A stretch of DNA of 64,000 nucleotides, taken from Phytophthora colocasiae (taxonomy: Eukaryota > Oomycota > Peronosporomycetes > Peronosporales > Peronosporaceae). Positions 13,439 through 42,149 of this stretch are shown here, one piece after another. The notes below the pieces were generated by a model. That model was not told the DNA's origin and searched no databases. It saw nothing but the letters and a program-made list of their open reading frames with translations. The DNA lies in contig JAGKQI010000094.1 of the NCBI GenBank assembly GCA_018806915.1, positions 744,001 to 808,000 of the forward strand. The letters run 5' to 3'. Every line of letters begins with the position of its first letter. The stretch's first letter is position 1. A program made the position numbers and the translations under genes.

Positions 13439-13741
13439 TGGTGGTCATACAGGGGCCGAGGTTGAGACAACGAGGCGTAGAACGCATGAAGACGATAACG
13501 ATGACGACAACATCCGAGACGGCCAAGCGGGCAACGAAGGCGAAACGGCCCAAGTCGAAGTCAAGCGCTGAGCGTGAACGGAAAAACGAAGATGACGAGC
13601 CCGGTGAGGAAATTAACGACGACGAAGGGAGCAGTCGACCCCAGAAGCTTCGCGCATGGTACTCAGGAGTCAGGCGACGGAGCACACCACCGAGCCGAGG
13701 CGTGAGGCGGTAGACGAGGGCAGGCGGCACTCGATGAGACC

Positions 13742-15856: not shown

Positions 15857-15891
15857 CGAGCGGCGTTGAGGGGATACGGCGTTCGAGTGCA

Positions 15892-16616: not shown

Positions 16617-16691
16617 GCACTGACGGCACTTGAAGAACGACGGCGGCAGCGTACGAGTAAGGACAAGAGTTCGGACACACAAACGAGGAAT

Positions 16692-22614: not shown

Positions 22615-23010
22615 GCATGTTAGAAAGCAAAAATATGTTTAAAAAAAATTCGAATGTGTGTCGAAAAAAAGGAAGGGTATAATTCTACCGGTAGGTTTTG
22701 GACGTTAGCAAAAATGTTCGGCATCGATCTTTTTGGATGGTGCGTTTTGCTGACAGGCATTGTGGATTGAGGAATGCGTCGAATAATCATACTGGGTTTG
22801 CAGGTTGTGCACCTGATGACTGTCATTTTCAGTTTTCAAAAAGAAGAAATGGACAAGAAACTCGAGGAAAAGGCTCAGTTGGAGTAAGATAACTTCTTCC
22901 ACCGGTGCGAGGGACCAAATCGGGTGTGAGACGCAATCTGATTGGCCAAAACTGTAGCCATCTAAAATAGTGCACTCATTTATAGTCCCATTTATCAGTG
23001 AAAGGGTGGC
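22615..23010. other. AT-rich spacer, no gene seen
   Basis: The sequence right after the 3' LTR continues the pre-insertion site downstream of L1. It contains A/T runs and nothing codes convincingly. Confidence 0.6.
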
Positions 23011-23026
23011 ACTCCTTTTGAGTTCG

Positions 23027-23080
23027 ACTAGACTTTTGAGGCAGAGTGGACTTTTGAGGCAGACTGGACTTTTGAGGCTG
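23027..23080 (+). repeat. 18-bp repeat array, left, 3 units
   Basis: Three adjacent 18-bp units with core GGACTTTTGAGGC; a partial unit may precede them at 23011-23026. Confidence 0.85.
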
Positions 23081-23107
23081 TACCTCCACTACAGAGTAAG
23101 ATTATGC

Positions 23108-23124
23108 TTCATTTTCCAAATTTC
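23108..23124 (+). promoter_or_regulatory. Oomycete-type core promoter of the Crypton recombinase
   Basis: CTTCATTTTCCAAATTT matches initiator plus flanking element and lies 22-38 bp before the ATG at 23146. Confidence 0.55.
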
Positions 23125-23145
23125 ATTGCTTGTGCGCATGCCGAC

Positions 23146-24945
23146 ATGGATCTCCCAGAAAACAGCCCGCTATACAGCGCTGCGCTCACCGCAGCTAAAT
23201 TTGCGGATCAGCGGCTGGAGCCTCGGACGCGGACGGACTACAACAGTAGCCTTCGCCGCTTTGCAGAATTTTGCCAAATTCAAGGATACCCAAACCCACT
23301 CAAGGAGCGCTTCGTTCAGCTACCTGGTGTGATCGCTGCATATATCAATCAGCTTGCGACAACCAACAAGTGCCAGTGGCCAGCTGAAAAGCTTCGCGCT
23401 GCTATCAGTTGGCATTACACTAAGCCCGAGATGCTTGCAGATGGTCATCCACACGATCGCTGGGTTGTTGATATTGCGTCGGATGGAACCCGAATTACAA
23501 GGGGCAACCCTGCCAGGTCAGCAGCAATCACGCAAATGCTTTCCGGTCTCAGCAAGGCAAAAAAGCGCGAGCGCACCCCCAAATGAGCTTCATCTATGTC
23601 GCTGTCGATGTTGTCTCGGATGATGTCGTTTCTTGAAGCGGATTCTATGTTCAACGAAACGATGCGCACATGGTTTTCGGCTGTTTGTTCACTCGCGTTC
23701 TGCGGGATGTGTCGAATCAACGAAGTTTTACTGATGAAGAAAGGTGATATTCAGTTTGGACTTCGTCGACGATCGCGTAAGAGCAATACTTCAATTAAAT
23801 TTGGTTGTTTTACGATCCGCGATCGCAAGACTGATCATGACCCACTAGCCAGCCGCACGTACTCATTGCACTACCTTCCAAAAAAAGAGCCGCTGAGGCA
23901 TTGACGTATCGAGAGATGGTTCACATATGCTGCTACTCGCCTACATCACAAATGGAGAGATGATGACTATGCATTCCCTTCGTTGGCGAAAATCCCGCGA
24001 AGTACCAAAAAGCGGCGCACATGCTCCAAAAACGTTGGTTCCGGTGAAGGACCGTTTACTAAAGTTGGCATTAAGTGGGGATCACCGATGTCTGATACAA
24101 ATTTCACGCAGGTTCTAAACATTGTAGCCGGTGCCTGTGGAATCTGTAAGAGTGTGTTAGGAGACGACATATGATTTACGTCGCGCTGTTTTCGGCGTGG
24201 TGGTGCTCAACATCGCTTCATGTTTGCTCCGGAGAAGAGACGATGGTCGCTGAAATTGGTTAAGTGGTGGGCTGGGTGGTCCCTTGCGAGAAACGAGACA
24301 GTGATTAAGTACTTTCTGGATGACGTTCTGGACCGTGAAGAAAATCAGCTTGGTGACTCCACTAGCACCGGATGCAGTGTCATGCTCCGATAACGCGTTG
24401 ATAGGCTTCCAAGATATTTCCTATGACTCGTTTAACGCTGGTGCTGAAGCTAGAACTGTATCTAGAAATGAGGAAATTACGATGCAATCCTCTGTTTTGG
24501 ATGATTTAAAAAGCTCTCTGCTGGAAGGTATACGAGACATGGTCACGGAAATTGCAGCTAGTCAAACGGTCTCACTGGATGGACAACCTTCCGAATGTTC
24601 TGAGACTGCCGCTGGTGAAGAAGACAACACCCATTTGATGTCTGAATGACTGGATGCGAAGTCATGGAGAGACTACATAGATCAGTACTGGAATGCTAAC
24701 CCCTCTCTCCATCAGTACCGAGCAGGCGTGGCTATGCTTCCACATGAGCGAAAACGGCACAGGTCGCGGTTGTCAAGGATGAAAATCATTGCGGAATTTT
24801 TGTCCGAGACAACTATAACGACGACAAGGACCGGTTTGAGACTGCGTTTAGCAGTCAAATCAACGGCGAGTTAACAGTGAACAAGATACTTTGCGCGATA
24901 CGAATGCTGAAAAGGTCACCAGTAGATGACATTGTAATGTTGTAA
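23146..24945 (+). pseudogene. Crypton-type tyrosine recombinase, with stops and frameshifts
   Basis: N-terminal SAM-like part LEPRTRTDYNSSLRRFAEFC; first catalytic Arg in CGMCRINEVLLMKKGDI; second block FTSRCFRRGGAQHR, where the His of H..R has become Arg; then KWWAGWS and a likely nucleophile Tyr in VIKYFLDDV. After it comes a Gly/Ser/Glu-rich linker and a helical C-terminal region (SWRDYIDQYWNANPSLHQYR, ERKRHRSRLSRMKII) that resembles the GCR1_C-type DNA-binding domain of some Cryptons. Lesions: frameshift near 23590, TGA at 23902 and 24172 (both could be CGA before), further shifts after 24640. Such enzymes cut and insert circular elements; this copy is inactive. Confidence 0.8.
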
Positions 24946-25727: not shown

Positions 25728-25749
25728 TGTCGAGCTTGGACACGCGTCG

Positions 25750-26656
25750 TTGAGGACTGCTGCCCCCAGCGAGAAGGTTTCTCGCTGTAAGCTGCAAGAT
25801 GACAAGCCAAACCTTGTCATCCTGAACTTGATGTCGAAGAGAGTGAACTCTCTTCGTGCCCTAGTGGACTCGGGCGCGTCGAACAAACGACAGGGAACTC
25901 TTCAAAGGCTTGACTTCGAAGAGGCCGACACGCCACGCAGCGTGTTGGAGGTGCGGCTGGCAACAGGTGCCACCGTGAGGGCTGAGAAGCGCGTAGTCCG
26001 TGTGCGCTTCTCTTACAAACGAAGGACGTTTGTGGAAGACCTTATCGTCTTGGATCTAGACGATAAGTTCGACTTGGTATTAGGCATGCCGTGGCTTGCA
26101 CGGCATGACCCGATGATCAACTGGGAGAAGCGTACGCTCGTACGCTTCAACAACACATGCGCGACAGAGAGCGATGGCCCTGTCAGTGCTGCACATGCAC
26201 CGGCCGGTGCATGTGATTCCCCAGTTGAGGCAGCAGCGTCCGCCGCTGCCTCCGATCGCTGCCGGCGACCGCCAGCGACTCAGGGAGTCGTTGGGAGAAA
26301 ATGTGTGTCGACTCAGAAAGAAGGGTCGCGGTCACATGAGTGATGGTCAGGTGAATGTGAATCACCTGACGCATAAACATCTGAATGATGTTTGTCACAT
26401 GAGTGATGGTCAGGTGAATGCGATTCACCTGAGAGAAGGTAAAATACCGGTATTACCGGTATCCTTGGAGGTAGTTCAAGCCCCCAAGGGTCGCGCCGAC
26501 GACGTCGCGTCAACTCTGGGAGTTGACGAAGCAAATAATATTCGGGGAACCGAAAGGCGTGCGTCAGCTCTGGGAGCTGACGCCACTGGCGCGTCGCTGC
26601 TAGTTCTGGGAACTAGCGATCGTGCATCAGCTCCGGAGCTGATGATGCGTGTATAG
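25750..26656 (+). pseudogene. Gypsy B1 protease region
   Basis: Aspartic protease: RALVDSGASN at the active site, LVLGMPWLARHDPMINW at the second conserved block. Against B2 about ten bases are missing right after DSGASN, exactly one arm of a local hairpin, so the frame here differs. A later frame change near 26300 leads into a Ser/Ala-rich region built on hairpin-forming repeats. Confidence 0.8.
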
Positions 26657-26720
26657 GCGAACGTTCGCTGCTAGTTCCGGGAACTAGCGATCGTGCGTCA
26701 GCTCTGGGAGCTGACGATAC

Positions 26721-28890
26721 GTGTACAAGCGAACACTCGCTAGCGCAGGAAGCAGCGAGAGCACGTCGACTCCGGGAGTCGACGATGCGGTTGCTTCATC
26801 CGTAGTAGCGGGTGAAGTTGCTCCATCCGTAGGAGCGGAAGGAGGCGCAGCGGTTCAGGGAACCGACTGCGCGGCAGGAGGTACTGGCGGTTGCAAACGC
26901 CCAGCACCCGAAGAACCTGCGTGCTCACGTGCAGCGGTGCTGCACGCGATGAGCGGCACACAAGCAGTGCTTGGATGTGCGAGTCAGCGGATGGAATCCG
27001 CTGACGATTGCGATAAAGTCCCGTTCAAGGTGGGATGCCTTGGACGTGGAGCGCCTGGAGCTGAGCTCCATGGCAGACCTTCGCGGCGCAAGCTCAGGGA
27101 GCTTTGCGAGTCCCAGTCCGTGACTGAGGAGGGTGTATCTGCAGGGCAGACACCGAGTGTCGAGACGTTGAACGTCTTGACACGTACTGGTACTGGGTTA
27201 CAGTACCAGAGGATGCGGTTGGAGAATCCGCCGACGTGTGCGTCGGCGTTGACCGCACTTCCAACGATGAGTAGGAAGAGCTTCGCGCGAGACTTGTACG
27301 ATGGACGTATCGAACAAATTTGCATTCGCTCGGATATCGAGAGAGTGGATCGCGAAGCCGAAGAGCTGAAGCAGCTCGTCTTCGATGGCATCACTGAGGG
27401 TGATGACTCCCTCAGTGCGAAGACTAAGAAGCAGCGCTTCGAAGAGCATAGTTGGGACTCGGTGAGGTCGAGTCCCTACTACGAGGTTCTGCGGGAGTAC
27501 AAGGATGTACTCCCGGACGAGATTCCTTCGGAGCTTCCGAAGGATAAGGGCGTACAGCACGAGATTGATCTCGTGCCAGGCACGAAGTACTGTGTTACAC
27601 GGCAGTGGCCACTGTTGCGTGAACAAGTGACGACTTCTTTGAAAGTCGTCGCCTTGCAGGTCAAGTGCGGGAATCAAAGTCCCCGCACAGTGCCCCAACG
27701 TTCTGTGTGAAAAAGCCACAGGGCGGCTGGCGCATCGTTCATGCGTACAACAAGTTGAACGATGCGACGATACCGGCGCAGAACGCCGATACCGCGAAAA
27801 AGATGTTATCATCGATTCGATGGCCTTGAGCACTATCTTCAGTGCTCTAGATCTGCGTGATGGATTCTATCAGATCCTCATGCGTAAGAGGGACATCCCT
27901 CTCACAGCAGTAAGCACTCCAAGCGGTATGCTTTGGGAGTGGCTCGTCATGCTACAGGGACTTAAGAACGCCCCTGCGATGTTCAATAGATGCGTGACAC
28001 ATCTATTGCGCTCGATGCGCGACTTCGCACCGAGCTACTTCGACGACGTGTTCAGCCACAGCTGTGAACGGAAAGGCGGACATTGAAATGCACAAGGTGC
28101 ATCTTCGGAAGCTGCTAGAGCTTATGAGGAAACATAAGCTCTATGCGAACCTGAAGAAGTATATCTTCGGGGCGAGCGAGATACCCGTGCTGGGGTGTCT
28201 CGTGGGGAAAGACGGCGTGCGCCCTGACCCTGAGAGGTCAGAGTGATCAATGAATGGCCCACGCCATCCAATGTGAAGGAACTGAGGCAGTTCTCTTGGC
28301 TTGCCACGTACTTGTGCAAGTACGTGGACAACTATGCGGGCAAGATTCGCCCATTGTCACAGCTTCTTAAGAAAGAAGCTGAGTGGATTTGGACGACCGA
28401 GTGCGAGGAGGCATTCGGTGCAGTCAAGCAGGGCTTGACTGAAGCGCCGATCTTGGCCGTGGCGGACCAAGATCGTCCATTCCACGTAGTGTGCGATGCA
28501 TCCGACTTTGCAATCGGATGTGCATTGATGCAACACGATCACGAAGGGCGTGATCGTGTAGTCTACTATCAATCGCGTCAGCTGAAGCCAGCTGAGCGTA
28601 ACTATCCCGTACATGACAAGTAGCTCCTTGCCATGAAGTTTGCACTCGCAAAGTTCCGAGTGTATCTACTTGGGAGTAGACCGTTCGTGGTATATACAGA
28701 CCACGCATCATTGCGGACGGCGGTTAAGTCGCCGCACATCTCGCAACGTATGGCGAGATGGTTGTCCTTCTTCGCGGAGTACAACTTCCGGGTAGAGTAT
28801 AAACCCGGAAGACTCAATGTAGTGGCCGACGCGTTATCACGTCGACCTTTTTTGTTAGTTTCTTTTGGGCATTTTTTCATTCAGCTTTAG
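26721..28890 (+). pseudogene. Gypsy B1 reverse transcriptase and RNase H, multiply broken
   Basis: An RT lead-in ends with YKDVLPDEIPSELP and the start of the palm; after a frame change the RT continues with KKPQGGWRIVHAYNKLN, FSALDLRDGFYQI, LQGLKNAPAMFNR and catalytic SYFDDVF. Frameshifts follow near 28060 and 28245, then RNase H (PFHVVCDASDFAIG) with an in-frame TAG at 28621, then YTDHASLRTA and VVADALSRRP. The post-YFDD shift, the shift near 28245 and the TAG are all shared with B2. Confidence 0.85.
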
Positions 28891-28959
28891 CACCAACTCC
28901 TGAAATTGGATCATTAACCTGACTATGCGAAGACGGTCGACGCCAACGCAGTTGGCGTC

Positions 28960-30714
28960 GTGAGGACAAGTGTGCCGTTGTCAACGTTGATTGACGACGT
29001 GAAGAACGCGTATGCAACGGATGCAGACGCGAAGGGGCTGCTGGAGTTCCTCGCAGCACCTTCCGACGTGGCACGTCGGAAGCTAACCCCTCATCTTCGA
29101 GCTCGTGTACACCGCTATCGTGTACACGAAGGCCTACTGTTGTACAGTGCAGTAGACGACAATGCGGATCGCATTGTCGTTCCGAATGATCATGACCTCC
29201 GGTTGAGGATCATGTTCGAGTATCACGATGCCCCCACGGCAGGGCATCCGGGTCGTGAGAAGACATACACTCTTCTCACGCGTGACTTCTACTGGCACCA
29301 CCAGTACAAGTGGGTGCGCAAGTACGTACGTGCTTGCGAGGTTTGTCAACGCGTGAAGCCTGCGCGGTTCTCGCAGGCTCCTCTTCAATCACTTCCGACT
29401 CCGTCGGAGTTTGGCAGTCCATGTCCATGGACTTTGTCTTCGGTCTTCCGCCTGACAACAAGCGGAGGACAGGCATCGTTGTCTTTGTGGACCGATTCAG
29501 CAAGATGGTCCATCTTGCTGCCGTCCCGACAACTGATACAGCCGCGCAGGCTGCGCGACTGTTTGTTGACATGGTGTTCAAACACCATGGCATGCCGCTC
29601 GACATTGTGTCGGACCGTGATCCACGCTTCACAGCGCGGTTCTGGCAAGAAGTGTTTACACTTCTTGGTTCACAGTTATCAATGTCGACTGCGGATCATC
29701 CGCAGACGGACGGACAGACCGAACATGTCAACCGCGTACTGGGTGACACGCTGAAGAGCTACGCTCACTCGTTCCCGCACTGGAGCGAGTGCTTGCCGAT
29801 GGCAGAGTTTGCCATCAACAACTCGGTGCATGCCTCGACAGGGCATACACCATTCTACGTGAACGCCATGAGGCATCCACGATTGCCGAGCATGCTCGGC
29901 GGGGTAGCTTCCTCCTTAAGTGGGGGAGGATCTACGGTTGCGTCCGAACAACCGCAGAATGCAACTGATAGCAGCACACTATCAGCTGCGGTGACGCGTG
30001 CGACGTCTCGTTCTAGCAGGAACGAGCGCGCGATGTCTGTGCCGGGCACAGACATGAGAGAAGATAGCGAGCAGGCAGGGCCTGCTGCTGACAAGGGCGA
30101 CAAGCTGAATGGATTCAGCTCGAGTGCGCTAGACTTTGTCCAGCGAAGACAAGCCGTCATACGGTTTGTCCAGGATGCTATCGCAGCTTCTGTCGATCGA
30201 ACGCTGATAATGTTGGTAGGGGTAACATAAATGAATTCAAAGTGGGTTCGTTAGTTTTGTTAGCTACACAAAACCTGCCTAAACATGCAGTGTCTGACTT
30301 TGGAGCAAGCAAGCTTGCTCCAAGATTCATTGGGCCGTTCAAAGTACTTGAACGGCACGGCAACGCGTACCGGCTGGACATACCGTCCAGCATGAGGCTC
30401 CACCCGACCTTCTACGTCGGACGGTTGAAGCCGTACGTGCAGCACGGACTACCTAGGGTTGGTAGTCCGACTGAGGAGTGCGAGAGGCCTGGAAGGCCTT
30501 CTCGAGACCGTCGACACGGTCGACCAACCGGTTCACTCTCGTCCCAAGACCGGACGAGAGGTTCGAGGCAGTCTGAGCTGCCTCGCAGACCTCAGCACGG
30601 AGGACACGAACCTCCTGCTTCAGAGCCGCTATCTCAGCGCTCTGTGTCTGCTCCAGCGCAGCAACTCGATCGTGCAGGGCACGATCGTCATGGTCATAGC
30701 GTTGACCATGCGGA
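28960..30714 (+). pseudogene. Gypsy B1 integrase, frameshifted
   Basis: Zinc motif (HDAPTAGHPGREKTY, CEVCQRVK) and core with SMDFVFGLP, VSDRDPRFTARFW and HPQTDGQTEHVNRV give the HHCC and DDE signature. A one-base loss against B2 near 29410 shifts the frame between zinc domain and core, and another break lies near 30225. The tail has a GPY/F-like module (LAPRFIGPFKVLERHGNAYRLD, LHPTFYVGRLK). The chromodomain is lost by the deletion next to the LTR. Confidence 0.85.
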
Positions 30715-30723
30715 GGGAGTGTT

Positions 30724-31132
30724 TGTAACGGGGTTACACGTACAAGTGGTTGTACCACTTGTAACTCTAACAGTTAGGATAACTGTTAGAGGTTGGAAAT
30801 GGGCCTCAGACCTTGGTGTGCTGTACACACCAAAGGATACATGAGCGGACCACATTATTGGGTGGTTCGTGTGCATTTGTGCACCAACCACACGTTGGCA
30901 GACCCTTTAGAAATAGATAACAAACAGTTTTAGGAGGTCCATAATTGGCTAATGCCAAATTCAATAACAGTTCTCATTTTTACGGTATTTTGCAGTTTAA
31001 TTTAGTTATATTTGATTTAATTATACTTATTTAAATAAGTATACTTAAATTAAGTCTATTCTAATTGCACGCTTCCTCATACACGTAAGCGCACGTGTAC
31101 GCCACCTAATAGGTCTAGGTAGACCCATTACA
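30724..31132 (+). repeat. LTR1 of gypsy B, shared by B1 and B2
   Basis: TGTAACG...CCATTACA, 409 bp. Against LTR2 it lacks a 52-bp stretch holding one hairpin and half of another. Carries a 12-bp perfect stem (CTCTAACAGTTA, 30765-30791). It serves as 3' LTR of B1 and 5' LTR of B2, the arrangement left by LTR-LTR recombination or tandem duplication. Confidence 0.88.
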
Positions 31133-31216
31133 CCTGGTAGCACTTTGTAGTCCGTCCCACGACCGACTGCTGTTCGTTCGTATGGAGTCATACGAACGCG
31201 GGGTAGAGAACTCCCA

Positions 31217-32166
31217 ATGGATGAGGGATCCACTGGGACCCCTCAAATGTCCGTGACGCGCACGGACTGCGCCCACCTGTCTGATCCAGAGTGGGAGGCT
31301 CTCCAAAGACTTTCACAAGTCATTGGAGAGGCAGCGGTAGCGACGATGCTTCGTACGCTATCGCCGACAGAGCAACACGGTGTTGCTCTGGGGTACATTG
31401 TTAAGGAGCAACGAGATGTTGCTGCCTCGGTGGCTTCCCCTAAGCCACGCGTGGAGTCGTTGAAACTCCACGTGAGTACCTACACGGGGAAGGAGGACGA
31501 GACCCTCCTTCGGTGGCTTGTCGAACTCGACACAGCCGTTGCGGCTCGACGTATCGTCGATCCGATGTCGAAGGTCGCGTTCGCCATGTCATGTCTTGGC
31601 GGACGTGCGAGGAGTTGGGCCTATGGGCGCCGACTCTCGGATCCTACGTGCTTCAGCACGTACGAGGTGTTCAAGGAGGAACTCAAGCTTGCGTTTGAGC
31701 CTCCGAAGAACGAGTTCAGATCGAGAGCAGAGTTTCTCGATCTGCAACAGGGCAAGGATGATATTCACACCTTTGCCCAGCGTGCCTCGATACTTGGTAT
31801 CGAACATAGTGGCCAACCCGATCGACGAGGCGACCAAGGTCGTCACGTTCATGAAGGACTAAGAGATGGTCCCGTCAAAACATATCTCTTCCGAGAGTAT
31901 CCGAATACTCTCGAGGAGGCGATCAGCCTTGCAATGCAAGAGGAGTTTAGCCGGCGTCAAGCTAAACTCCATGCGAACGCGCCGAAGCCGGCGCGTCCTG
32001 TTGTGAAGACGGGAGGTCCGGAACCTATGGACCTCTCGAGTGCTACGACTGCTGGTCAACAGCAGCGTAGATACGGCTAGGTTCGATGTTACAAGTGTAG
32101 TAACATCGGTCACTATGCACGCGAGTGCACAGCGGGCGGGCGTTCAAAAAACGCCAAGGACCAGTA
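31217..32166 (+). pseudogene. Gypsy B2 Gag with CCHC knuckle after an in-frame stop
   Basis: 287 open codons: start region, capsid-like part (LKLHVSTYTGKEDETLLRWL, FAMSCLGGRARSWAYG), then EYPNTLEEAISLAMQEEF, typical of oomycete Ty3 Gag. A TAG at 32078 stops it just before the zinc knuckle CYKCSNIGHYAREC, which is in the same frame and ends near 32166. A small frame irregularity may lie near 31800. Would form the particle and bind RNA in an intact element. Confidence 0.82.
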
Positions 32167-32300
32167 GGCGCGGGGCGTCCTACTGGTGATGCAGTCTCGC
32201 GTGTCGAGCTTGGACACGCGACGATGAGGACTGCTGCCCCCAGCGAGAAGTTTCTCGCTGTAAGCTGCAAGATGACAAGCCAAACCTTGTCATCCTGAAC

Positions 32301-33143
32301 GTGATGTCGAAGAGAGCGAACTCTCTTCGTGCCCTAGTGGACTCGGGCGCGTCGAACAACTTTGTTCGACAGGGAAGTCTTCGAAGGTTTGACTTCGAAG
32401 AGGCCGACACGCCTCGCGGCGTGTTGGAGGTGCGGTTGGCAACAGGTGCCACCGTGAGGACTGAGAAGCGCGTAGTCCGTGTGCGCTTCTCTTACAAACG
32501 AAGGATGTTTGTAGAAGATCTTATCGTCTTGGATCTAGACGATAAGTTCGACTTGGTATTAGGCATGCCGTGGCTTGCACGGCATGACCCGGTGATCAAC
32601 TGGGAGAAGCGTACGCTCGTACGCTTCAACAACACATGCGCGACAGAGAGCGATGGCCCTGTCAGTGCTGCACATGCACCGGCCGGTGCATGTGGATCCC
32701 CAGTTGAGGCAGCAGCGGCCGCCGCTGCCTCCGATCGCCGCCGGCGACCATCAACTACTCCGGGAGTCGTTGGGAGAAAATGTGTGTCGACTCAGAAATC
32801 TGAGCCGAAGGGTCGCGGTCACATGAGTGATGGTCAGGTGAATGTGAATCACCTGACGCGTAAACATCTGAATGATGTTTGTCACATGAGTGATGGTCAG
32901 GTGAATGCGATTCACCTGAGAGAAGGTAAAATACCGGTATTACCGGTATCCTTGGAGGTAGTTCAAGCCCCCAAGGGTCGCGCCGACGACGTCGCGTCAA
33001 CTCTGGGAGTTGACGAAGCAAATAATATTCGGGGAACCGAAAGGCGTGCGTCAGCTCTGGGAGCTGACGCCACTGGCGCGTCGCTGCTAGTTCTGGGAAC
33101 TAGCGATCGTGCATCAGCTCCGGAGCTGATGATGCGTGTATAG
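32301..33143 (+). CDS. Gypsy B2 protease and hairpin-encoded linker
   Basis: 280 codons. Aspartic protease with RALVDSGASNNFVRQG and LVLGMPWLARHDPVINW. The second half (from about 32750) is a low-complexity region whose DNA is a row of small palindromes: repeated MSDGQVN motifs come from a repeated hairpin unit. Intact here, where B1 has lost about ten bases after DSGASN. Confidence 0.82.
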   Translation: MMSKRANSLRALVDSGASNNFVRQGSLRRFDFEEADTPRGVLEVRLATGATVRTEKRVVRVRFSYKRRMFVEDLIVLDLDDKFDLVLGMPWLARHDPVINWEKRTLVRFNNTCATESDGPVSAAHAPAGACGSPVEAAAAAAASDRRRRPSTTPGVVGRKCVSTQKSEPKGRGHMSDGQVNVNHLTRKHLNDVCHMSDGQVNAIHLREGKIPVLPVSLEVVQAPKGRADDVASTLGVDEANNIRGTERRASALGADATGASLLVLGTSDRASAPELMMRV

Positions 33144-33205
33144 GCGAACGTTCGCTGCTAGTTCCGGGAACTAGCGATCGTGCGTCAGCTCTGGGAACGG
33201 ATGAT

Positions 33206-34708
33206 ATGTGTACAAGCGAACACTCGCTAGCGCAGGAAGCTAGCGAGAGCACGTCGACTCCGGGAGTCGACGATGCGGTTGCTTCATCCGCTCCGGGAGC
33301 GGATGGAGGCGCAGCGGTTCAGGGAACCGACTGCGCGGCAGGAGGTGCTGGCGGTTGCAAACGCCCAGCACCCGAACAACCTGCGTGCTCACGTGCAGCA
33401 GCGCTGCACGCGATGAGCGGCACTCAAGCCGGGCTTGATAGTGCGAGTCAGCGGAAGGAATCCGCTGACGATTGCGATAACGTCCCGTCCAAGGTGCGAT
33501 GCCTTGGACGTGGAGCACCTGGAGCCGGGCTCCACGGTAGATCTTCGCGGCGCAAGCTCAGGGAGCTGCGCGAGTCTCAGTCCGGGACTGAGACGGGTGT
33601 ATCTGCAGTGCAGACACCGAGTGTCGAGACGTTGAACGTCTTGACACGTACTGGTACTGGGTTACAGTACCAGAGGATGCGGTTGGAGAATCCGCCGACG
33701 AGTGCGTCGGCGTTGACCGCACTTCCAACGATGAGTTGGAAGCGCTTCGCACGAGACTTGTACGATGGACGCATCGAACAAATTTGCATTCTCTCGGATA
33801 TCGAGAGAGTGGAGCGCGAGGCCGAAGAGCTGAAGCAGCTCGTCTTCGATGGCATCACTGAGGGTGATGACTCCCTCAGTGCGAAGACTAAGAAGCAGCG
33901 CTTCGAAGAGCATAGTTGGGACTCGGTGAGGTCGAGTCCCTACTACGAGGTTCTGCGGGAGTACAAGGATGTACTCCCGGACGAGATTCCTTCGGAGCTT
34001 CCGAAGGATAAGGGCGTACAGCACGAGATTGATCTCGTGCCAGGCACGAAGTACTGTGTTACACGGCAGTGGCCACTGTTGCGTGAACAAGTGACGACTT
34101 CTTTGAAAGTCGTCGCCTTGCAGGTCAAGTGCGGGAATCAAAGTCCCCGCACAGTGCCCCAACGTTCTGTGTGAAAAAGCCACAGGGCGGCTGGCGCATC
34201 GTTCATGCGTACAACAAGTTGAACGATGCGACGATACCGGCGCAGACGCCGATACCGCGAAAAGATGTTATCATCGATTCGATGGCCTTGAGCACTATCT
34301 TCAGTGCTCTAGATCTGCGTGATGGATTCTATCAGATCCTCATGCGTAAGAGGGACATCCCTCTCACAGCAGTAAGCACTCCAAGCGGTATGCTTTGGGA
34401 GTGGCTCGTCATGCTACAGGGACTTAAGAACGCCCCTGCGATGTTCAATAGATGCGTGACACATCTATTGCGCTCGATGCGCGACTTCGCACCGAGCTAC
34501 TTCGACGACGTGTTCAGCCACAGCTGTGAACGGAAAGGCGGACATTGAAATGCACAAGGTGCATCTTCGGAAGCTGCTAGAGCTTATGAGGAAACATAAG
34601 CTCTATGCGAACCTGAAGAAGTATATCTTCGGGGCGAGCGAGATACCCGTGCTGGGGTGTCTCGTGGGGAAAGACGGCGTGCGCCCTGACCCTGAGAGGT
34701 CAGAGTGA
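33206..34708 (+). pseudogene. Gypsy B2 reverse transcriptase, broken
   Basis: Linker, RT lead-in (YKDVLPDEIPSELPKD), frame change near 34140, then palm with WRIVHAYNKLNDATIP, STIFSALDLRDGFYQI and catalytic SYFDDVF. The frame then ends prematurely (SHSCERKGGH, stop near 34546) by a one-base defect; the next frame continues to VGKDGVRPDPERSE (stop 34708). Both defects are also in B1. Confidence 0.85.
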
Positions 34709-35379
34709 TCAATGAATGGCCCACGCCATCCAATGTGAAGGAACTGAGGCAGTTCTCATTTGCCACGTACTTGTGCAAGTACGTGGACAACTATGCGGGC
34801 AAGATTCGCCCGTTGTCACAGCTTCTTAAGAAAGAAGCTGAGTGGATTTGGACGACCGAGTGCGAGGAGGCATTCGGTGCAGTCAAGCAGGGCTTGACTG
34901 AAGCGCCGATCTTGGCCGTGGCGGACCAAGATCGTCCATTCCACGTAGTGTGCGATGCATCCGACTTTGCAATCGGATGTGCATTGATGCAACACGATCA
35001 CGAAGGGCGTGATCGTGTAGTCTACTATCAATCGCGTCAGCTGAAGCCAGCTGAGCGTAACTATCCCGTACATGACAAGTAGCTCCTTGCCATGAAGTTT
35101 GCACTCGCAAAGTTCCGAGTGTATCTACTTGGGAGTAGACCGTTCGTGGTATATACAGACCACGCATCATTGCGGACGGCGGTTAAGTCGCCGCACATCT
35201 CGCAACGTATGGCGAGATGGTTGTCCTTCTTCGCGGAGTACAACTTCCGGGTAGAGTATAAACCCGGAAGACTCAATGTAGTGGACGACGCGTTATCACG
35301 TCGACCTTTTTTTTTTTTCTTTTGGGCATTTTTTTATTCAGCTTTAGCACCAACTCCTGAAATTGGATCATTAACCTGA
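34705..35379 (+). pseudogene. Gypsy B2 RNase H with shared in-frame TAG
   Basis: Starts at the frame change NEWPTPSNVKELRQF, then LSQLLKKEAEW and RNase H (PFHVVCDASDFAIGCALMQ). TAG at 35080-35082 interrupts NYPVHDK-LLAMKFALAKFRVYLL, at the same codon as in B1. Continues YTDHASLRTA and FRVEYKPGRLNVVDDALSRR, with D for the usual A in VADALSR. A poly-T run near 35307 precedes the spacer to the integrase. Confidence 0.85.
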
Positions 35380-35416
35380 CTATGCGAAGACGGTCGACGC
35401 CAACGCAGTTGGCGTC

Positions 35417-36925
35417 GTGAGGACAAGTGTGCCGTTGTCAACGTTGATTGACGACGTGAAGAACGCGTATGCAACGGATGCAGACGCGAAGGGGCTGCTG
35501 GAGTTCCTCGCAGCACCTTCCGACGTGGCACGTCGGAAGCTAACCCCTCATCTTCGAGCTCGTGTACACCGCTATCGTGTACACGAAGGCCTACTGTTGT
35601 ACAGTGCAGTAGACGACAATGCGGATCGCATTGTCGTTCCGAATGATCATGACCTCCGGTTGAGGATCATGTTCGAGTATCACGATGCCCCCACGGCAGG
35701 GCATCCGGGTCGTGAGAAGACATACACTCTTCTCACGCGTGACTTCTACTGGCACCACCAGTACAAGTGGGTGCGCAAGTACGTACGTGCTTGCGAGGTT
35801 TGTCAACGCGTGAAGCCTGCGCAGTTCTCGCAGGCTCCTCTTCAATCACTACCGACTCCGTCGGAGTGTTGGCAGTCCATGTCCATGGACTTTGTCTTCG
35901 GTCTTCCGCCTGACAGCAAGCGGAGGACGGGCATCGTTGTCTTTGTGGACCGATTCAGCAAGATGGTTCATCTTGCTGCCGTCCCGGCTACTGTTACAGC
36001 CGCGCAGACTGCGCGACTGTTTGTTGACATGGTGTTCAAACACCATGGCATGCCGCTCGACATTGTGTCGGACCGTGATCCACGCTTCACAGCGCGGTTC
36101 TGGCAAGAAGTGTTTACACTTCTTGGTTCACAGTTATCAATGTCGACTGCGGATCATCCGCAGACGGACGGACAGACCGAACGTGTCAACCGTGTATTGG
36201 GTGACACGTTGAAGAGCTACGCTCACTCGTTCCCGCATTGGAGCGAGTGCTTGCCGATGGCAGAGTTTGCCATCAACAACTCGGTGCATGCCTCGACAGG
36301 GCATACACCGTTCTACGTGAACGCCATGAGGCATCCACGATTGCCGAGCATGCTCGGCGGGGTAGCTTCCTCCTTAAGTGGGGGAGGATCTACGGTTGCG
36401 TCCGAACAACCGCAGAATGCAACTGATAGCAGCACACTATCAGCTGCGGTGACGCGTGCGACGTCTCGTTCGAGCAGGAACGAGCGCGCGATGTCTGTGC
36501 CGGGCACAGACATGAGAGATGATAGCGAGCAGGCAGGGCCTGCTGCTGACAAGGGCGACAAGCTGAAAGAATTCAGCTCGGGTGCGCTAGACTTTGTCCA
36601 GCGAAGACAAGCCGTCATACGGTTTGTCCAGGATGCTATCGCAGCTTCTGTCGATCAACAGAAGCTGAACGCAGATAATGTTTGTAGGGGCAACATAAAT
36701 GAATTCAAAGTGGGTTCGTTAGTTTTGTTAGCTACGCAAAACCTACCTAAACATGCAGTGTCTGACTTTGGAGCAAGCAAGCTTGCTCCAAGATTCATTG
36801 GGCCGTTCAAAGTACTTGAACGGCATGGTAACGCGTACCGGCTGGACATACCGTCCAGCATGAGGCTCCACCCGACCTTCTACGTCGGGCGGTTAAAAGC
36901 CGTACGTGCAGCACGGACTACCTAG
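35417..36925 (+). CDS. Gypsy B2 integrase, open
   Basis: 502 codons without a break: zinc domain (HDAPTAGHPGREKTY, CEVCQRVKPAQF), catalytic core with SMDFVFGLPPD, VSDRDPRFTARFW and HPQTDGQTERVNRV (DDE), then a Ser/Ala-rich insert and a GPY/F-like module (LAPRFIGPFKVLERHG, LHPTFYVGRLK). One extra A at about 36897 then ends this frame early; the chromodomain is in the next frame. This is the least damaged enzyme of the element. Confidence 0.9.
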   Translation: MRTSVPLSTLIDDVKNAYATDADAKGLLEFLAAPSDVARRKLTPHLRARVHRYRVHEGLLLYSAVDDNADRIVVPNDHDLRLRIMFEYHDAPTAGHPGREKTYTLLTRDFYWHHQYKWVRKYVRACEVCQRVKPAQFSQAPLQSLPTPSECWQSMSMDFVFGLPPDSKRRTGIVVFVDRFSKMVHLAAVPATVTAAQTARLFVDMVFKHHGMPLDIVSDRDPRFTARFWQEVFTLLGSQLSMSTADHPQTDGQTERVNRVLGDTLKSYAHSFPHWSECLPMAEFAINNSVHASTGHTPFYVNAMRHPRLPSMLGGVASSLSGGGSTVASEQPQNATDSSTLSAAVTRATSRSSRNERAMSVPGTDMRDDSEQAGPAADKGDKLKEFSSGALDFVQRRQAVIRFVQDAIAASVDQQKLNADNVCRGNINEFKVGSLVLLATQNLPKHAVSDFGASKLAPRFIGPFKVLERHGNAYRLDIPSSMRLHPTFYVGRLKAVRAARTT

Positions 36926-37415
36926 GGTTGGTAGTCCGACTGAGGAGTGCGAGAGGCCTGGAAGGCCTTCTCGAGACCGTCGACACGGTCGATCAACCGG
37001 TTCACTCTCGTCCCAAGACCGGACGAGAGGTTCGAGGCAGTCTGAGCTGCCTCGCAGACCTCAGCACGGAGGACACGAACCTCCTGCTTCAGAGCCGCTA
37101 TCTCAGCGCTCTGTGTCTGCTCCAGCGCAGCAACTCGATCGTGCAGGGCACGATCGTCATGGTCATAGCGTTGATCATGCGGAGGGAGTATTCCCACCCC
37201 CTCCGCCGCCGTTGCGCGACGCGCGTGGAGCGATCCGCTGGATTGTGGAGCGGAGCGTGGCTCATAAGAGAACGAACTCTCAAGGGGTTCGTTTTCGTAT
37301 TCGTTGGAGAGGATTTCCTCCCCATCGAGATACATGGGAGCCGCGGAACGTCCTGATGGAGGACGTTCCGGAAATGGTGAGGGCGTACGAAGCCCACCAT
37401 AACTTGCAGGGTTAA
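36906..37415 (+). pseudogene. Gypsy B2 integrase tail with chromodomain
   Basis: 169 open codons displaced by +1 from the integrase. After an Arg/Gly/Ser-rich stretch comes a chromodomain: IRWIVERSVAHKRTNSQG, FRIRWRGFPPHRDTWEPR, then MVRAYEAHH, with aromatic residues where a methyl-lysine cage is expected. In chromoviruses this domain steers insertion to heterochromatin. The coding region overlaps the 3' part of the minus-strand ORF. Absent from B1. Confidence 0.85.
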
Positions 37416-38468
37416 ACCCTGCACGAGGAGTGCTGCGGTCAGCCACAGCACTCGGAGCTTCGCGTGGCACAATACGACCACGGAGTTCCTTGATGTGATC
37501 GGGTACACGGACGACCGTGTACCCCAGGAGATCACTTTCGGTGAGACGTGTTGCCAAGGGTGGGCAACACGGACAGGGTGTGCCAAAGGGAACGGCACAT
37601 GGGATCCCCGCTTCCATGGACTGATCATGGAGGCGTTCACACTTACCACGTGTAGTGTAAGTGTAGTAGCGATCGCGAGCCGCAGCAACGCGATCGCGAT
37701 ATGCCTTCGGGTCTTTGTTGAAGTTATCAACAAAGGCGTTCCACGACTGACAAAGTGCCTGCCACTCGGGCACTTTGCTCTTGCGCGAAGTCTTCTTCGC
37801 TGCATAGTATCGGAGCTCATGGAAGAGTCCGATATAGTAGTCGCGTCTTTGAGTCTCGGACTCAAAGACAACCTTAGCGGCGACGTCGTCGTCGTTGATA
37901 CTGTTGCATGAGTACAACAGTATCGGGTTCGGTGGTGAACTAGCACCGAACCGGTCATGGATTTCTGCCTCAGTAGGCATCCATGGTGTGCGCACTGGCG
38001 GATCAGTGCGCGGGGCAGTGAGCGCCCTCGACATGGGGGACGCTTCATCATCACTGCGCGGACGCTTCGAGCTCGAAGCGTCCGAGGCCTCATCACGAGG
38101 TCGTCGAGATCCCACGGGTGGGTCTGACGTGTCTTCAGACGAAGACACGGGAGCGGGAGCCTTGACATCAACCTCCCCCTCCTCGACATCCTCCTCGTAG
38201 TCGAGGATGTCTTCGTAGTCCTCTCCAAAGAGTTCTTTGAGAGGGACAGCAGGATTCTTAACTCTGCTAGAGAAGAAGACTTCTTCTTCTTCTCATGCTT
38301 CTCCTTATGGAGAGCATGGTACTTGGTGACAGAGAGCTTCTCTGTCGGACCGCTGGAAGCAGCAGTGCTAGTGAGCACTGCTGAGGTCGTTGTTCCTGCT
38401 GCAGAGGCAGCAGGTGAGGCTTGCGCGTCCGCAGTAGCGGACGGAGACGTGGGCGTTGGCGAGTCCAT
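36922..38468 (-). pseudogene. Antisense ORF of gypsy B2, coiled-coil protein, one frameshift
   Basis: From an ATG at 38468 the frame reads a Ser/Thr/Ala-rich start and KKKKSSSLA, then shifts near 38270; the second frame is open for 408 codons from 38148 to 36922. Features: acidic patch (DYEEDVEEGEVD), basic SSSKRPRSDDE like a nuclear signal, a central folded-looking region with W in VPEWQALCQSWNAFVDNF, and a C-terminal heptad coiled coil (VAALEQTQSAEIAALKQEV, ending DRVDGLEKAF). Function unknown. It faces the sense genes, overlaps the chromodomain and ends before LTR2. B1 keeps only about 100 C-terminal codons. Confidence 0.65.
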
Positions 38469-38569
38469 TGCGAAATGAACTCGGATTTCTCTTGGGAACT
38501 TGACGGTCTTGTCAAGTTCTGTTGATTGACGTATCGAGACCGATATGTCGAATCTTAACGGGGGGATGG

Positions 38570-39019
38570 TGTAACGTACAAGTGGTTGTACCACTTGTAA
38601 CTCTAACAGTTAGGATAACTGTTAGAGGTTGGAAATGGGCCTCAGACCTTGGTGTGCTGTACACACCAAAGGATACATGGGCGAACCACATTATTGGGTG
38701 GTTCGTGTGCATTTGTGCATATTATTGGTAGAAAGTAACGGATTTCTACCAATCACTGAGCAGAGTTTCTGCCAACCACACGTTGGCAGACCCTTTAGAA
38801 ATAGATAACAAACAGTTTTAGGAGGTCCATAATTGGCTTATGCCAAATTCAATAACAGTTCTCATTTTACGGTATTTTGCAGTTTAATTTAGTTATATTT
38901 GATTTAATTATACTTATTTAAATAAGTATACTTAAATTAAGTCTATTCTAATTGCACGCTTCCTCATACACGTAAGCGCACGTGTACAACACCTAATAGG
39001 TCTAAGCAGACCCATTACA
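38570..39019 (+). repeat. LTR2, 3' LTR of gypsy B2
   Basis: TGTAACGTACA...CCATTACA, 450 bp. Includes 38720-38771, absent from LTR1, with a 10-bp stem (TTGGTAGAAA, 38725-38752) and half of a 9-bp stem around GCCAAC. Confidence 0.88.
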
Positions 39020-39369
39020 CAATTGCTTAGCAACAAGGAGCTCTTCAAGCGTGTAAGTATTTTGGGGGACTGCACATGTCAAAATGAATTACTATACATG
39101 TAATGGCCTACAGATCGAGCACAGTGCAACACCAGTTGAGACAGCGTCGTGTACACAGTTTCAGGAGAGGCAGAAATCTCGATAACCACTAGAACCAGTT
39201 GGCAGTTTGCTTTGCAGCCTGAAATCCAGCGCGCTAGGAATGACCTGGCTTCAAAATATCGTTAAGTGCGTCAAATGGTAAAGCTGCAACAACGAACAAC
39301 ACGTCGCCAACAGCAAGAACTTCAAGATTGCCTGTCAACACTTGCTAAGGTCATGGACAACTTATAGTT
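39020..39369. other. No gene seen
   Basis: AT-rich unique sequence between LTR2 and an LTR fragment; a TACATGTA palindrome lies near 39095. Confidence 0.5.
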
Positions 39370-39520
39370 ATTTTACGGTATTTTGCAGTTTTAATTGTTT
39401 ATATTTAATTTAACTATACTTATTTAAATAAGTATAATTAAATTAAGTCTATTCTAATTGCACGCTTCCTCATACACGTAAGCGCACGTGTACGCCACCT
39501 AACTAAGCAGATCCATTACA
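39370..39520 (+). repeat. 3' fragment of a gypsy B LTR
   Basis: About 150 bp closely matching the end of LTR1/LTR2 (from ATTTTACGGTATTTTGCAG to CCATTACA), with small indels. A solo or truncated older LTR of the same family. Confidence 0.8.
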
Positions 39521-39959
39521 TGAGAGGTCCGTAAGCATGCTAGCACGAAACAATTCCATACTGACACCCTCGAGCTCCAGCATTATATCGAACGCGCTGA
39601 TCGCAGTCGTTCGCGCCTTCTGGGTGTTTGTAGGCACAAACGCTGAGAGGCTCATATGACCACAAGGACTCTTTCGTTATGCACTGGTGACTGTCCACCA
39701 GTGTCTTGCTACCTAGAATAGTGTATTCCAACTGTAGGAACTGTATGAATACGCCTAGTTGTCTGAATAACTATAATATTTGTAAAATATTTTTTGTGCT
39801 GGGTTTTAGTATGATAATATCCATATTTTGACAGCAATTCCGACAAATATATGCAGGGAACTGTCGGAACATTTCCCCTACCACTGTCTGATTTGATCGG
39901 ATAAAATATCTTTAGGTAGAATTTTCATTGGCTGTTGTCGGCCAGGAAACAATATTGCT
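39521..39959. other. No convincing gene
   Basis: Mixed sequence with a 63-codon minus-strand frame (39540-39731) of no recognised family, then AT-rich DNA. Confidence 0.45.
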
Positions 39960-41320: not shown

Positions 41321-41329
41321 CGTACGCTA

Positions 41330-41916
41330 CACTCCGCGACAGGATAGATCGGCCACCTGTGTCGGCGGTCAAAACTCGGTCAATTTTAGGAGTTGTAGCC
41401 TGCTATAAAGATATGTTTTACATCTATTTCAATGTGAAGCGGTGTTTGTGCTAACGAGCTGGATATTGCAGTTCATTGCGTGGCTACCATACAGAGGAGT
41501 ACTTTTGGCACTGCGACAGGTTAAATCGGCCACCCAAGAATATACAAAAATCAAGTACTTCGTTTCGAAATGATTGTATCAGTAGTGACCTGTTTCCTTT
41601 TTATCAACAACTTCTACGCATCGACGCGGCATCGACTGGATGAGGGACTCCAGTAGAGCTAATGGGATTGATTCCCATGCCAGCGAAGTACTTGATTTTT
41701 GTATAGTCTTACTTTTGGCACTGCGACAGGTTAAATCGGCCACCCACTCCTCTGTATGGTAACCACGCAATGAACTGCAATATCCAGCTCGTTAGCGCAA
41801 ACACCGCTTCACACTGAAATAGATGTAAAACATATCTTTATAGCAGGCTACAACTCCTAAAATTGACCGAGTTATGACCGCAGACACAGGTGGCCGATCT
41901 ATCCTGTCGCGGAGTG
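41330..41916. mobile_element. Tc1/mariner-type miniature element with long terminal inverted repeats
   Basis: 587 bp flanked by TA on both sides (41328-41329 and 41917-41918). The ends, CACTCCGCGACAGGATAGAT and its complement, are inverted repeats of about 170 bp. In the middle a 37-bp motif starting ACTTTTGGCACTGCGACAGG occurs twice as a direct repeat (about 41503 and 41709) around a second inverted repeat pair and a transposase remnant. The inner motif resembles the outer end (GCGACAGG..A.ATCGGCCACC), as if one element inserted into a relative. Confidence 0.75.
41579..41770 (-). pseudogene. Tc1/mariner transposase C-terminal remnant
   Basis: 63 codons on the minus strand ending WESIPLALLESLIQSMPRRC then VEVVDKKETGHY, very like the C-terminus of Tc1-type transposases (W..IP...L..LI.SMPRR...V). 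The catalytic DDE/D part is missing, so the element depends on another source for movement. Confidence 0.7.
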
Positions 41917-42149
41917 TAGCATGTTCGTTCAATGGAAATGCTCAAAGTTAAGTGAGCCATTCAGGTTGGGCTCGTGTGAGCACATCAGCTTTTTACACAT
42001 TGTAAATCACACATAATTGCAATTGCTGGATTTTCTACATGGGTTGCAGTCACCGATGTAAGAAGCAAAATACTTATAACTCCAAGGCCACGATAAGACT
42101 AAGGAAGACGCCAACCAATCCTCACTACTTGCACTGTCCTCGTCCTCGT

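What the first reader, a model, noticed from the sequence alone, without database searches (positions are those of the whole stretch)
25728..39019. A retrotransposon whose whole sequence is built from short perfect hairpins
Both gypsy B copies show local inverted repeats throughout LTRs, gag, pol and the antisense ORF. Examples: GAGCTTATG/CATAAGCTC (28118-28141), CCACGTACTTG/CAAGTACGTGG (28304-28327), ACACGATCACG/CGTGATCGTGT (28533-28559), CTTCCGACGTG/CACGTCGGAAG (29060-29082), CGACAATGCG/CGCATTGTCG (29157-29179), CAGCAAGATG/CATCTTGCTG (29498-29520), TTGGAGCAAGC/GCTTGCTCCAA (30300-30323), CTCTAACAGTTA and complement in the LTR (30765-30791), GAGCAACAC/GTGTTGCTC in gag (31370-31388). In 28118-28830 I count about 14 stems of mostly 6-11 bp, near one per 50 nt, inside coding sequence. 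Gypsy A, the Cryptons and host genes show nothing like it by eye. I know of no described element with this property. Possible causes: selection for folded genomic RNA (packaging, RNAi effects), or a copying process that repeatedly perfects near-palindromes by template switching.
Basis: seen in the sequence. Interest (0 to 1): 0.92.

Follow-up and report, generated by a model that had tools for sequence, protein, structure and literature searches.

The report
Retrotransposon clade written in perfect hairpins
A family of jumping genes in a Phytophthora-like water mould has nearly its whole sequence, protein-coding parts included, written as short perfect hairpins, most likely because its copying step repeatedly folds back and copies one hairpin arm from the other, which would mean that a copying quirk has shaped an entire coding element.

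Summary
25728-39019 holds 343 perfect stems of 6 bp or more (loop 0-15) against 46 +- 7 in dinucleotide shuffles, and 132 of 9 bp or more against 0.8. The quoted stems are exact; the count of 14 in 28118-28830 is exact (2.1 +- 1.5 expected). Gypsy A lies below its shuffles. A genomic copy open over 1145 codons has 44 stems of 9 bp or more against 0.75 +- 0.8 in synonymous shuffles. The 60 fetched loci of the family share it; two sister families have it more weakly, at positions shared no more often than the protein alone would allow. G.T and A.C mismatches are about equally common and both strands fold well, so RNA pairing is not what is kept. Synonymous changes in stems are depleted among inherited but not private variants. 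At four hairpins the loop is exactly reverse-complemented between copies (0.155 expected), the signature of template switching. Best explanation: element-specific template switching during replication makes and re-perfects short palindromes. Selection for structure remains a rival. The mechanism is known elsewhere; this scale in one retrotransposon clade looks new.

The parts
25728..30737 (+). Copy 1 of the Ty3/gypsy family (called B here), truncated at its 5' end: protease-linker-RT-RNase H-integrase; lacks the antisense-ORF region present in copy 2
   Evidence: Direct repeats of 91-100% identity with copy 2 at spacing about 6460; Pfam Integrase_H2C2 and rve; 12-18 stems >=7 bp per kb
30738..31133 (+). 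LTR between copy 1 and copy 2 (396 nt align to the right LTR; lacks 52 nt present there)
   Evidence: BLASTN alignment to 38574-39020, 388 of 448 columns identical, 53 gaps; hairpins included
31151..32080 (+). gag frame of copy 2 with hairpins such as GAGCAACAC/GTGTTGCTC 31370-31388
   Evidence: Retrotrans_gag PF03732 E=3e-7; leader+gag 13.7 stems >=7 bp per kb v 1.0 in shuffles
32190..33143 (+). protease and start of linker frame, copy 2; in copy L049 the linker carries tandem palindromic units
   Evidence: RVP_2 PF08284 E=1.6e-8; gag-pro-linker stretch 23.8 stems >=7 bp per kb; covarying units in L049
34087..34548 (+). reverse transcriptase frame, copy 2
   Evidence: RVT_1 PF00078 E=5.4e-18; 150 of 2575 candidates in the own genome were scored and all 150 match at 91% aa identity or more
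35375..36925 (+). integrase frame, copy 2
   Evidence: Integrase_H2C2, rve, SH3_Tf2-1; 16.1 stems >=7 bp per kb
36922..38292 (-). antisense ORF (456 aa) in the 3' part of copy 2, also hairpin-dense
   Evidence: 561 related proteins, the 120 listed mostly Phytophthora; the region has 19.7 stems >=7 bp per kb
38574..39020 (+). right LTR of copy 2 (by eye TGTAA...TTACA, about 38570-39019)
28849..28916 (+). 68-bp insert between RNase H and integrase of copy 1, without hairpins; matches of most other listed copies have a gap here
   Evidence: in the copies other than the four on C30 near the window, matches stop at query 548 and resume at 617 or later; 0 stems

Best explanation
This is a Ty3/gypsy LTR retrotransposon family whose sequence is being turned into an array of short perfect palindromes by an element-specific mutational process. 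During DNA synthesis in the retrotransposition cycle (most simply by the element's own reverse transcriptase; inferred), the growing strand at a near-palindrome leaves its template, copies the opposite arm (fold-back, or jump to the complementary strand) for about 8-11 nt and returns. This perfects the arms and sometimes inverts the loop. Purifying selection on the proteins removes events that damage them, so in conserved domains hairpins survive where synonymous codons allow. Shown: density, restriction among the families sampled, positions not conserved beyond what the protein allows, loop inversions, double arm changes, no clear G.U preference, upkeep only in inherited variation. Inferred: the responsible enzyme, the strand, the step of the cycle, and that no benefit to the element is needed.
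For: (1) Loop inversions: at 4 hairpins a minor loop is the exact reverse complement of the common one (GCG/CGC 14 v 7 copies; AAG/CTT 53 v 1; AAGGG/CCCTT 48 v 2; GCT/AGC 27 v 5) among 182 minor loop haplotypes, 0.155 expected (54 de-duplicated copies, 60 loci); one more loop, TGC, is the reverse complement of the second commonest loop GCA. Of these 16 carriers, 14 have no mismatch in the nine outer pairs and 2 have one. In non-hairpin windows 4 of 1988 haplotypes are reverse complements, each differing at one base only. (2) Concerted arms: double WC-to-WC variants 5 in 635 stem pairs v 2 in 4966 displaced pairs (the displaced pairs were not required to be WC to begin with); where both sites are synonymous, 3 doubles to 8 singles (60 loci); sister-family copies show the same, e.g. 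GTTGCCGGC/GCCGGCAAC v GTTACCAGC/GCTGGTAAC; eight linker units in L049 covary, 68 of 72 pairs WC. (3) No clear G.U excess: G.T 188 v A.C 166 in single-mismatch stems, 60 loci; inherited 26 v 20, private 65 v 71; fold z -4.0 plus, -5.4 minus strand. (4) Upkeep occurs in replication: rare (<=10%) synonymous changes, inherited/private 15/67 in stems v 82/131 outside (OR 0.36, p 0.0009); nonsynonymous 34/152 v 76/282 (p 0.43). (5) Gradient: stems >=7 bp per kb about 20 in B (L065-L068), 6-8 in F2, 2.4-2.9 in F3, 0-0.5 in gypsy A. (6) Positions: of 13-19 F2 stems per copy, 1-3 share a centre with L049; 1.8-2.5 expected among centres that the protein permits. (7) Precedent: template switching homogenises inverted-repeat arms and inverts spacers in yeast genes.
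Against: The enzyme is not identified; no RT was assayed. Stems rarely exceed 11 bp even where the protein would allow more (L049 linker: 1 of 65 centres with >=11 bp achievable), which a plain copying process does not predict by itself. Weaker protein constraint does not clearly mean more hairpins: per achievable centre the linker is not richer than RT-RNase H (31 of 301 v 29 of 188 at >=7 bp), and the non-coding LTRs (12 and 17 per kb) are not denser than coding parts. Four loop inversions versus the major loop is a small number, and flip carriers are scattered on a weakly supported tree (13 of 53 nodes >0.9), so recurrence cannot be told from recombination. Depletion of inherited synonymous variation in stems fits purifying selection equally well. 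A rough balance by me (inference) suggests correction at the visible flip rate alone may be too slow to keep stems perfect without non-flipping events or some selection. Inherited stem mismatches lean slightly to G.T (26 v 20). Hairpin excess in other parts of the window and in one of three other genome stretches suggests a weaker background process in the host or in other elements.
Confidence: 0.62

Rival explanations
1. Selection for nucleic-acid structure acting on both strands or at DNA level (for example compact or nuclease-resistant cDNA, escape from small-RNA targeting, dimeric protein binding sites) keeps stems perfect; template switching merely supplies variants.
For: Synonymous inherited variants in stems are as rare as nonsynonymous ones (0.069 v 0.057-0.070 per opportunity); fold z about -4 to -5 on both strands; stem length is capped near 11 bp although longer stems are achievable, as if longer duplexes were avoided; non-coding LTRs are not denser than coding parts; many copies have frames over 1000 aa.
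Against: Loop inversions need a copying explanation in any case; hairpin positions are shared with sister families no more than the protein permits; no clear RNA-type G.U tolerance.
Confidence: 0.25
2. Selection for genomic RNA folding alone (packaging or RNAi evasion, as in genome-scale ordered RNA structure of some RNA viruses).
For: Strong RNA folding of the plus strand, z -4.0 in 16 windows.
Against: G.T and A.C about equally frequent among mismatches; the minus strand is as strongly folded; loop flips.
Confidence: 0.05
3. A host replication or repair process (cruciform correction) acting on integrated DNA.
For: Hairpin excess in other parts of the window and in one of three other genome stretches; such a process is described for yeast chromosomes (PMC8604942).
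Against: Private, mostly post-insertion changes hit stems and non-stems alike (0.18 v 0.20 per synonymous opportunity), so integrated copies are not visibly corrected; gypsy A in the same genome has fewer hairpins than shuffles.
Confidence: 0.06
4. Chance, composition, codon usage or an assembly artefact.
For: None found.
Against: Dinucleotide, codon-order and synonymous shuffles; the same hairpins in dozens of separate copies on many contigs.
Confidence: 0.01

Closest known systems
Coding palindromes in mitochondrial genes of Nematomorpha (PMC6649704; abstract and discussion read)
   Same: Perfect inverted repeats inside functional coding sequence, both arms encoding conserved protein, dynamic gain and loss, no excess of imperfect repeats; template switching proposed as one possible mechanism.
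   Different: There: long repeats (up to 284 bp) in mitochondrial DNA. Here: 7-12 bp stems about every 50 nt through an LTR retrotransposon, with observed loop inversions and family-specific intensity.
Template switching between inverted-repeat arms in Saccharomyces cerevisiae genes (PMC8604942; abstract and one results section read)
   Same: Arm homogenisation and spacer inversion; inverted spacers of 2-5 bp between arms longer than 9 bp, inside coding sequence.
   Different: There: 39 genes, 10 spacer inversions, chromosomal DNA polymerase. Here: dozens of hairpins per element, a whole element affected, apparently tied to the retrotransposition cycle.
Template switching that creates and maintains RNA hairpins (PMC8794818; outline, abstract and start of introduction seen)
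   Same: One event can create a perfect stem or restore pairing; explains multibase compensatory changes.
   Different: Studied in RNA genes where structure is functional; here in protein-coding transposon DNA without clear sign of selection specific to RNA pairing.
Ty3/gypsy (Metaviridae) LTR retrotransposons of Phytophthora
   Same: gag, protease, RT, RNase H, integrase, LTRs; Phytophthora relatives up to 89% aa identity over the RT region.
   Different: Hairpin-built sequence; whether the relatives share it could not be read from proteins.
Genome-scale ordered RNA structure of some RNA viruses (recalled; listing only)
   Same: Strong folding along the whole genome.
   Different: Here mostly perfect Watson-Crick stems, no clear G.U preference, both strands alike, loop inversions.

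Membership tests
Ty3/gypsy LTR retrotransposon | gag, protease, RT, RNase H, integrase domains in that order | tested here: met
   Pfam gag, RVP_2, RVT_1, H2C2, rve, SH3_Tf2-1 in order along copy 2; the RNase H domain was seen in relatives, no window frame covering it was scanned
Ty3/gypsy LTR retrotransposon | flanking LTRs | tested here: met
   30738-31133 and 38574-39020 align, 388 of 448 columns identical, 53 gaps
Ty3/gypsy LTR retrotransposon | primer binding site after the 5' LTR and target-site duplication | tested here: inconclusive
   TGGTAGCAC follows the LTR by eye; which tRNA was not tested; copy 1 shows no 5' LTR, so no target duplication was read
Template-switch (quasipalindrome) mutation | inversion of the spacer between inverted arms | tested here: met
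   4 exact flips, 0.155 expected; arms of the carriers checked
Template-switch (quasipalindrome) mutation | arms homogenised; paired changes with few intermediates | tested here: met
Template-switch (quasipalindrome) mutation | the polymerase and the switching event observed directly | not testable with these tools
   needs an in-vitro or cDNA experiment
Genome-scale ordered RNA structure (selection on RNA) | G.U pairs tolerated in stems above A.C | tested here: not met
   G.T 188 v A.C 166; inherited 26 v 20, private 65 v 71: a slight lean only
Genome-scale ordered RNA structure (selection on RNA) | plus strand more structured than minus strand | tested here: not met
   z -4.0 plus, -5.4 minus, 16 windows
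Nematomorpha-type coding palindromes | perfect inverted repeats in conserved coding regions without changing the protein | tested here: met
   stem codons keep the relatives' residues about as often as other codons: 0.75 v 0.78 against six distant relatives
Nematomorpha-type coding palindromes | long arms (tens to hundreds of bp) in mtDNA | tested here: not met
   maximum stem 13 bp at loops up to 15; a dispersed LTR element

The most novel reading that the evidence does not exclude
A clade of LTR-retrotransposon reverse transcription makes frequent short fold-back or strand-switch excursions, so that the whole protein-coding element is driven toward an array of 8-11 bp perfect palindromes: a mutational drive that writes nucleic-acid structure into coding sequence, copy cycle after copy cycle, without needing selection for structure, with intensity differing between sister families.
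Probability: 0.5. Interest if true: 0.88.

Novelty: new variant of a known kind. Interest (0 to 1): 0.8.

Why it matters
Perfect pairing and compensatory changes are usually read as proof of a functional RNA structure. Here a whole coding element has both, while the details (loop inversions, no clear G.U preference, positions not conserved beyond what the protein allows, upkeep seen only in inherited variation) point to a copying mechanism. If right, it is a natural large-scale record of template switching, would make the switching behaviour of one reverse transcriptase directly testable against its sister families, and warns that covariation alone cannot prove function.

Tried and rejected
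Rejected: chance, composition and codon usage; decay artefact (hairpins coexist with a 1145-codon open stretch); RNA-only selection; host-wide process as main cause (one search is mixed); hairpins changing conserved residues (they do not).

Led nowhere: related DNA in GTDB genomes and IMG/VR (no relatives confirmed); parsimony of loop flips (the first run, mis-scored missing data; corrected; the tree is weakly supported). The first mutation counts used 60 loci in which four genomic copies were present twice and two were taken to be segmental duplicates of the window pair, so they were repeated on 54 copies with the same outcome; still rest on the 60 loci. The first stem-variability comparison used hairpins perfect in L049 only, which biases stems towards low variation; it was replaced. 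The first position comparison took only the RT part and four of six F2 loci; one search took all six F2 loci and one F3 locus over RT to integrase, found more shared centres (1-3 per F2 copy), and showed that this is what the protein alone would allow. The first arm check of the linker units was mis-indexed and redone; of nine matches to the unit pattern one poor match was left out. I expected denser hairpins where the protein is less constrained; searches do not clearly show that. Hairpin content of relatives in other species could not be tested: only their proteins are available.


Full report
What was checked. Eight of the nine quoted examples were tested by program and all eight exist exactly as quoted; the ninth, in the LTR, reads as a perfect hairpin. 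The region 25728-39019 holds 343 perfect stems of 6 bp or more with loops of 0-15 nt, against 46 +- 7 in 30 dinucleotide shuffles; at 9 bp or more it is 132 against 0.8. The gypsy A stretch 13400-23600 has 18 against 26.8, none of 8 bp or more. Of three 3-kb stretches elsewhere in the genome two are at or below their shuffles for stems of 7 bp or more and one is above (9 v 2.2). Of 191 stems of 8 bp or more found with loops up to 60 nt, 177 have loops of 0-14 nt; stem lengths have a second peak at 9 bp and fall off after 11 bp, maximum 13.

What carries it. Copy 2 (31151-39020) has Ty3/gypsy gag, protease, RT, integrase and the Tf2-1-like SH3 domain between LTRs that align at 30738-31133 and 38574-39020. 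Copy 1 (25728-30737) is 5'-truncated and shares the middle LTR. An antisense ORF in the 3' part of copy 2 belongs to a protein family with 561 hits, the 120 listed ones mostly Phytophthora. The RT region finds Phytophthora proteins at up to 89% identity; that the host is a Phytophthora or close relative is inferred from these hits. In the own genome (92.5 Mb) 150 of 2575 RT candidates were scored and all 150 match at 91% aa identity or more.

All fetched copies share it. Of 60 fetched loci, 57 have 19-29 stems (>=6 bp) per kb; the other three (L034, L035, L042; 15-17 per kb) match the family over only part of the locus. Stems >=9 bp run at 4-13 per kb in all 60. One copy, L049, is a single open frame over the fetched 1145 codons and holds 69 non-overlapping perfect stems of 7 bp or more, mean spacing 50 nt. 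Synonymous shuffling of that frame gives 0.75 +- 0.8 stems >=9 bp; the real sequence has 44. In the conserved RT-RNase H part, stem codons keep the residues of six distant relatives about as often as other codons do (0.75 v 0.78), so the hairpins are written in synonymous choices there. Of 65 centres where a stem of 9 bp or more could be written without changing that protein part, 18 carry one.

A gradient among related families. Stems >=7 bp per kb: family B about 20 (L065-L068); sister family F2 (L061-L064, L071, L074; about 59-65% aa identity to L049) 6-8; F3 (L069, L070, L072, L073; the other three 97.6-99.6% identical to L069; L070 is one of the 84.9-bit class that fills most of the list) 2.4-2.9; gypsy A (about 31-47% aa over pieces) 0-0.5. 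Over the aligned RT-to-integrase stretch, 1-3 of 13-19 F2 stems per copy, and 1 of 7 in L069, share a centre with L049. That is above a random placement (0.2-0.6) but equal to random placement among centres which the L049 protein permits (1.8-2.5 for F2, 0.85 for L069). So this is a shared tendency steered by the protein, not a set of conserved structures.

Evidence on mechanism. (a) Comparing copies, whole loops are reverse-complemented between arms that stay paired: GCG/CGC, AAG/CTT, AAGGG/CCCTT, GCT/AGC, with 0.155 such cases expected among 182 minor loop haplotypes; a further TGC is the reverse complement of the second commonest loop GCA at the same hairpin. Of the 16 carriers, 14 have no mismatch in the nine outer pairs and two have one. 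Windows outside hairpins gave 4 of 1988, each differing by one base only. Loop inversion is a described result of template switching between inverted arms (PMC8604942, section read). (b) Pairs change together: double Watson-Crick variants are 5 in 635 stem pairs against 2 in 4966 displaced pairs, which were not required to be Watson-Crick at the start; they include an A-T/C-G pair (15 and 11 loci) with one intermediate seen; F2 copies show several hairpins with paired changes; eight tandem linker units in L049 keep 68 of 72 pairs while the pairs themselves vary (one poor ninth match left out). (c) Mismatches in stems are G.T about as often as A.C (188 v 166; inherited 26 v 20, private 65 v 71), and both strands fold well (z -4.0 and -5.4; gypsy A +0.6 on both). 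Selection on RNA should favour G.U and the plus strand. (d) In 54 distinct copies, rare synonymous variants inherited by two or more copies are depleted in stems relative to private ones (15 inherited to 67 private, v 82 to 131; OR 0.36, p = 0.0009; with variants up to 20%, 23/67 v 101/131, p = 0.003); nonsynonymous variants show no significant difference (p 0.43 and 0.15). Private changes fall on stems and elsewhere alike (0.18 v 0.20 per synonymous opportunity). Upkeep therefore happens while the element replicates, not in resident copies.

Against the reading. The stem-length cap near 11 bp is not predicted by copying alone. Per achievable centre the little-conserved linker is not richer than RT-RNase H (31 of 301 v 29 of 188 at 7 bp or more), and the non-coding LTRs are not denser than coding parts (12 and 17 per kb). 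Point (d) fits purifying selection as well.

Reading. An element-tied copying process that perfects near-palindromes, filtered by selection on the proteins, explains (a)-(d), the gradient and the unconserved positions. Selection for structure on both strands, with template switching as supplier, explains (c) and (d), and the length cap better, but gives no reason for (a). I put the copying process at 0.62 and structure selection at 0.25. The enzyme (the element's RT) is inferred from the family restriction and from (d).

What is known. Template switching that homogenises inverted-repeat arms and inverts spacers is described in yeast genes (PMC8604942, abstract and one section), proposed for RNA genes (PMC8794818, outline and abstract), and suggested as one possibility for long coding palindromes of Nematomorpha mitochondria (PMC6649704, abstract and discussion). 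In eight searches of the open-licence PMC library none of the listed papers (1 to 20 per search; titles and starts of abstracts seen) is on a retrotransposon built of hairpins; most subscription journals are not held there. Hence: a new variant of a known kind, at an unusual scale.

Limits.

Noticed in passing
36922-38292 (-): Antisense ORF of 456 aa in the 3' part of copy 2 belongs to a family of uncharacterised proteins (561 hits, the 120 listed mostly Phytophthora; P. citrophthora 87%, P. sojae about 50%), without a Pfam match; apparently an accessory antisense gene of these gypsy elements.
   Followed up: partly
28849-28916: A 68-bp A+T-rich insert between RNase H and integrase is present in the window copy and three other copies on the same contig, and falls in a gap of the matches of the other listed copies.
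   Followed up: partly
G000:C30:772-781 kb and 858-867 kb: The tandem pair of copies in the window has a second pair about 86 kb away on the same contig, with nearly the same spacing and the same 68-bp insert, suggesting segmental duplication.
   Followed up: no
   Followed up: no
41326-41920: A 175-nt inverted repeat, 97% complementary, with a 245-nt spacer.
   Followed up: no
39371-39526: A third, 84% identical fragment of the LTR end lies about 350 nt beyond the right LTR.
   Followed up: no
30690-30760 and 38560-38590: At the copy 1-LTR junction TGTAAC is followed by GGG and its exact reverse complement GTTACA, absent from the right LTR start; it looks like a small templated inverted insertion (by eye).
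   Followed up: no
30883/30884 v 38720-38771: The two LTRs differ by a 52-nt stretch that itself contains an 11-bp perfect hairpin (ATTGGTAGAAA/TTTCTACCAAT).
   Followed up: no
L077 (G000:C48:600001-603000): One of three arbitrarily chosen genome stretches also has a hairpin excess (stems >=7 bp 9 v 2.2); its content was not annotated.
   Followed up: no
protein P0005 (P. ramorum H3GBI2): A public protein that matches family B at residues 2-212 and sister family F2 at 530-1187, i.e. a chimera or a nested insertion.
   Followed up: no
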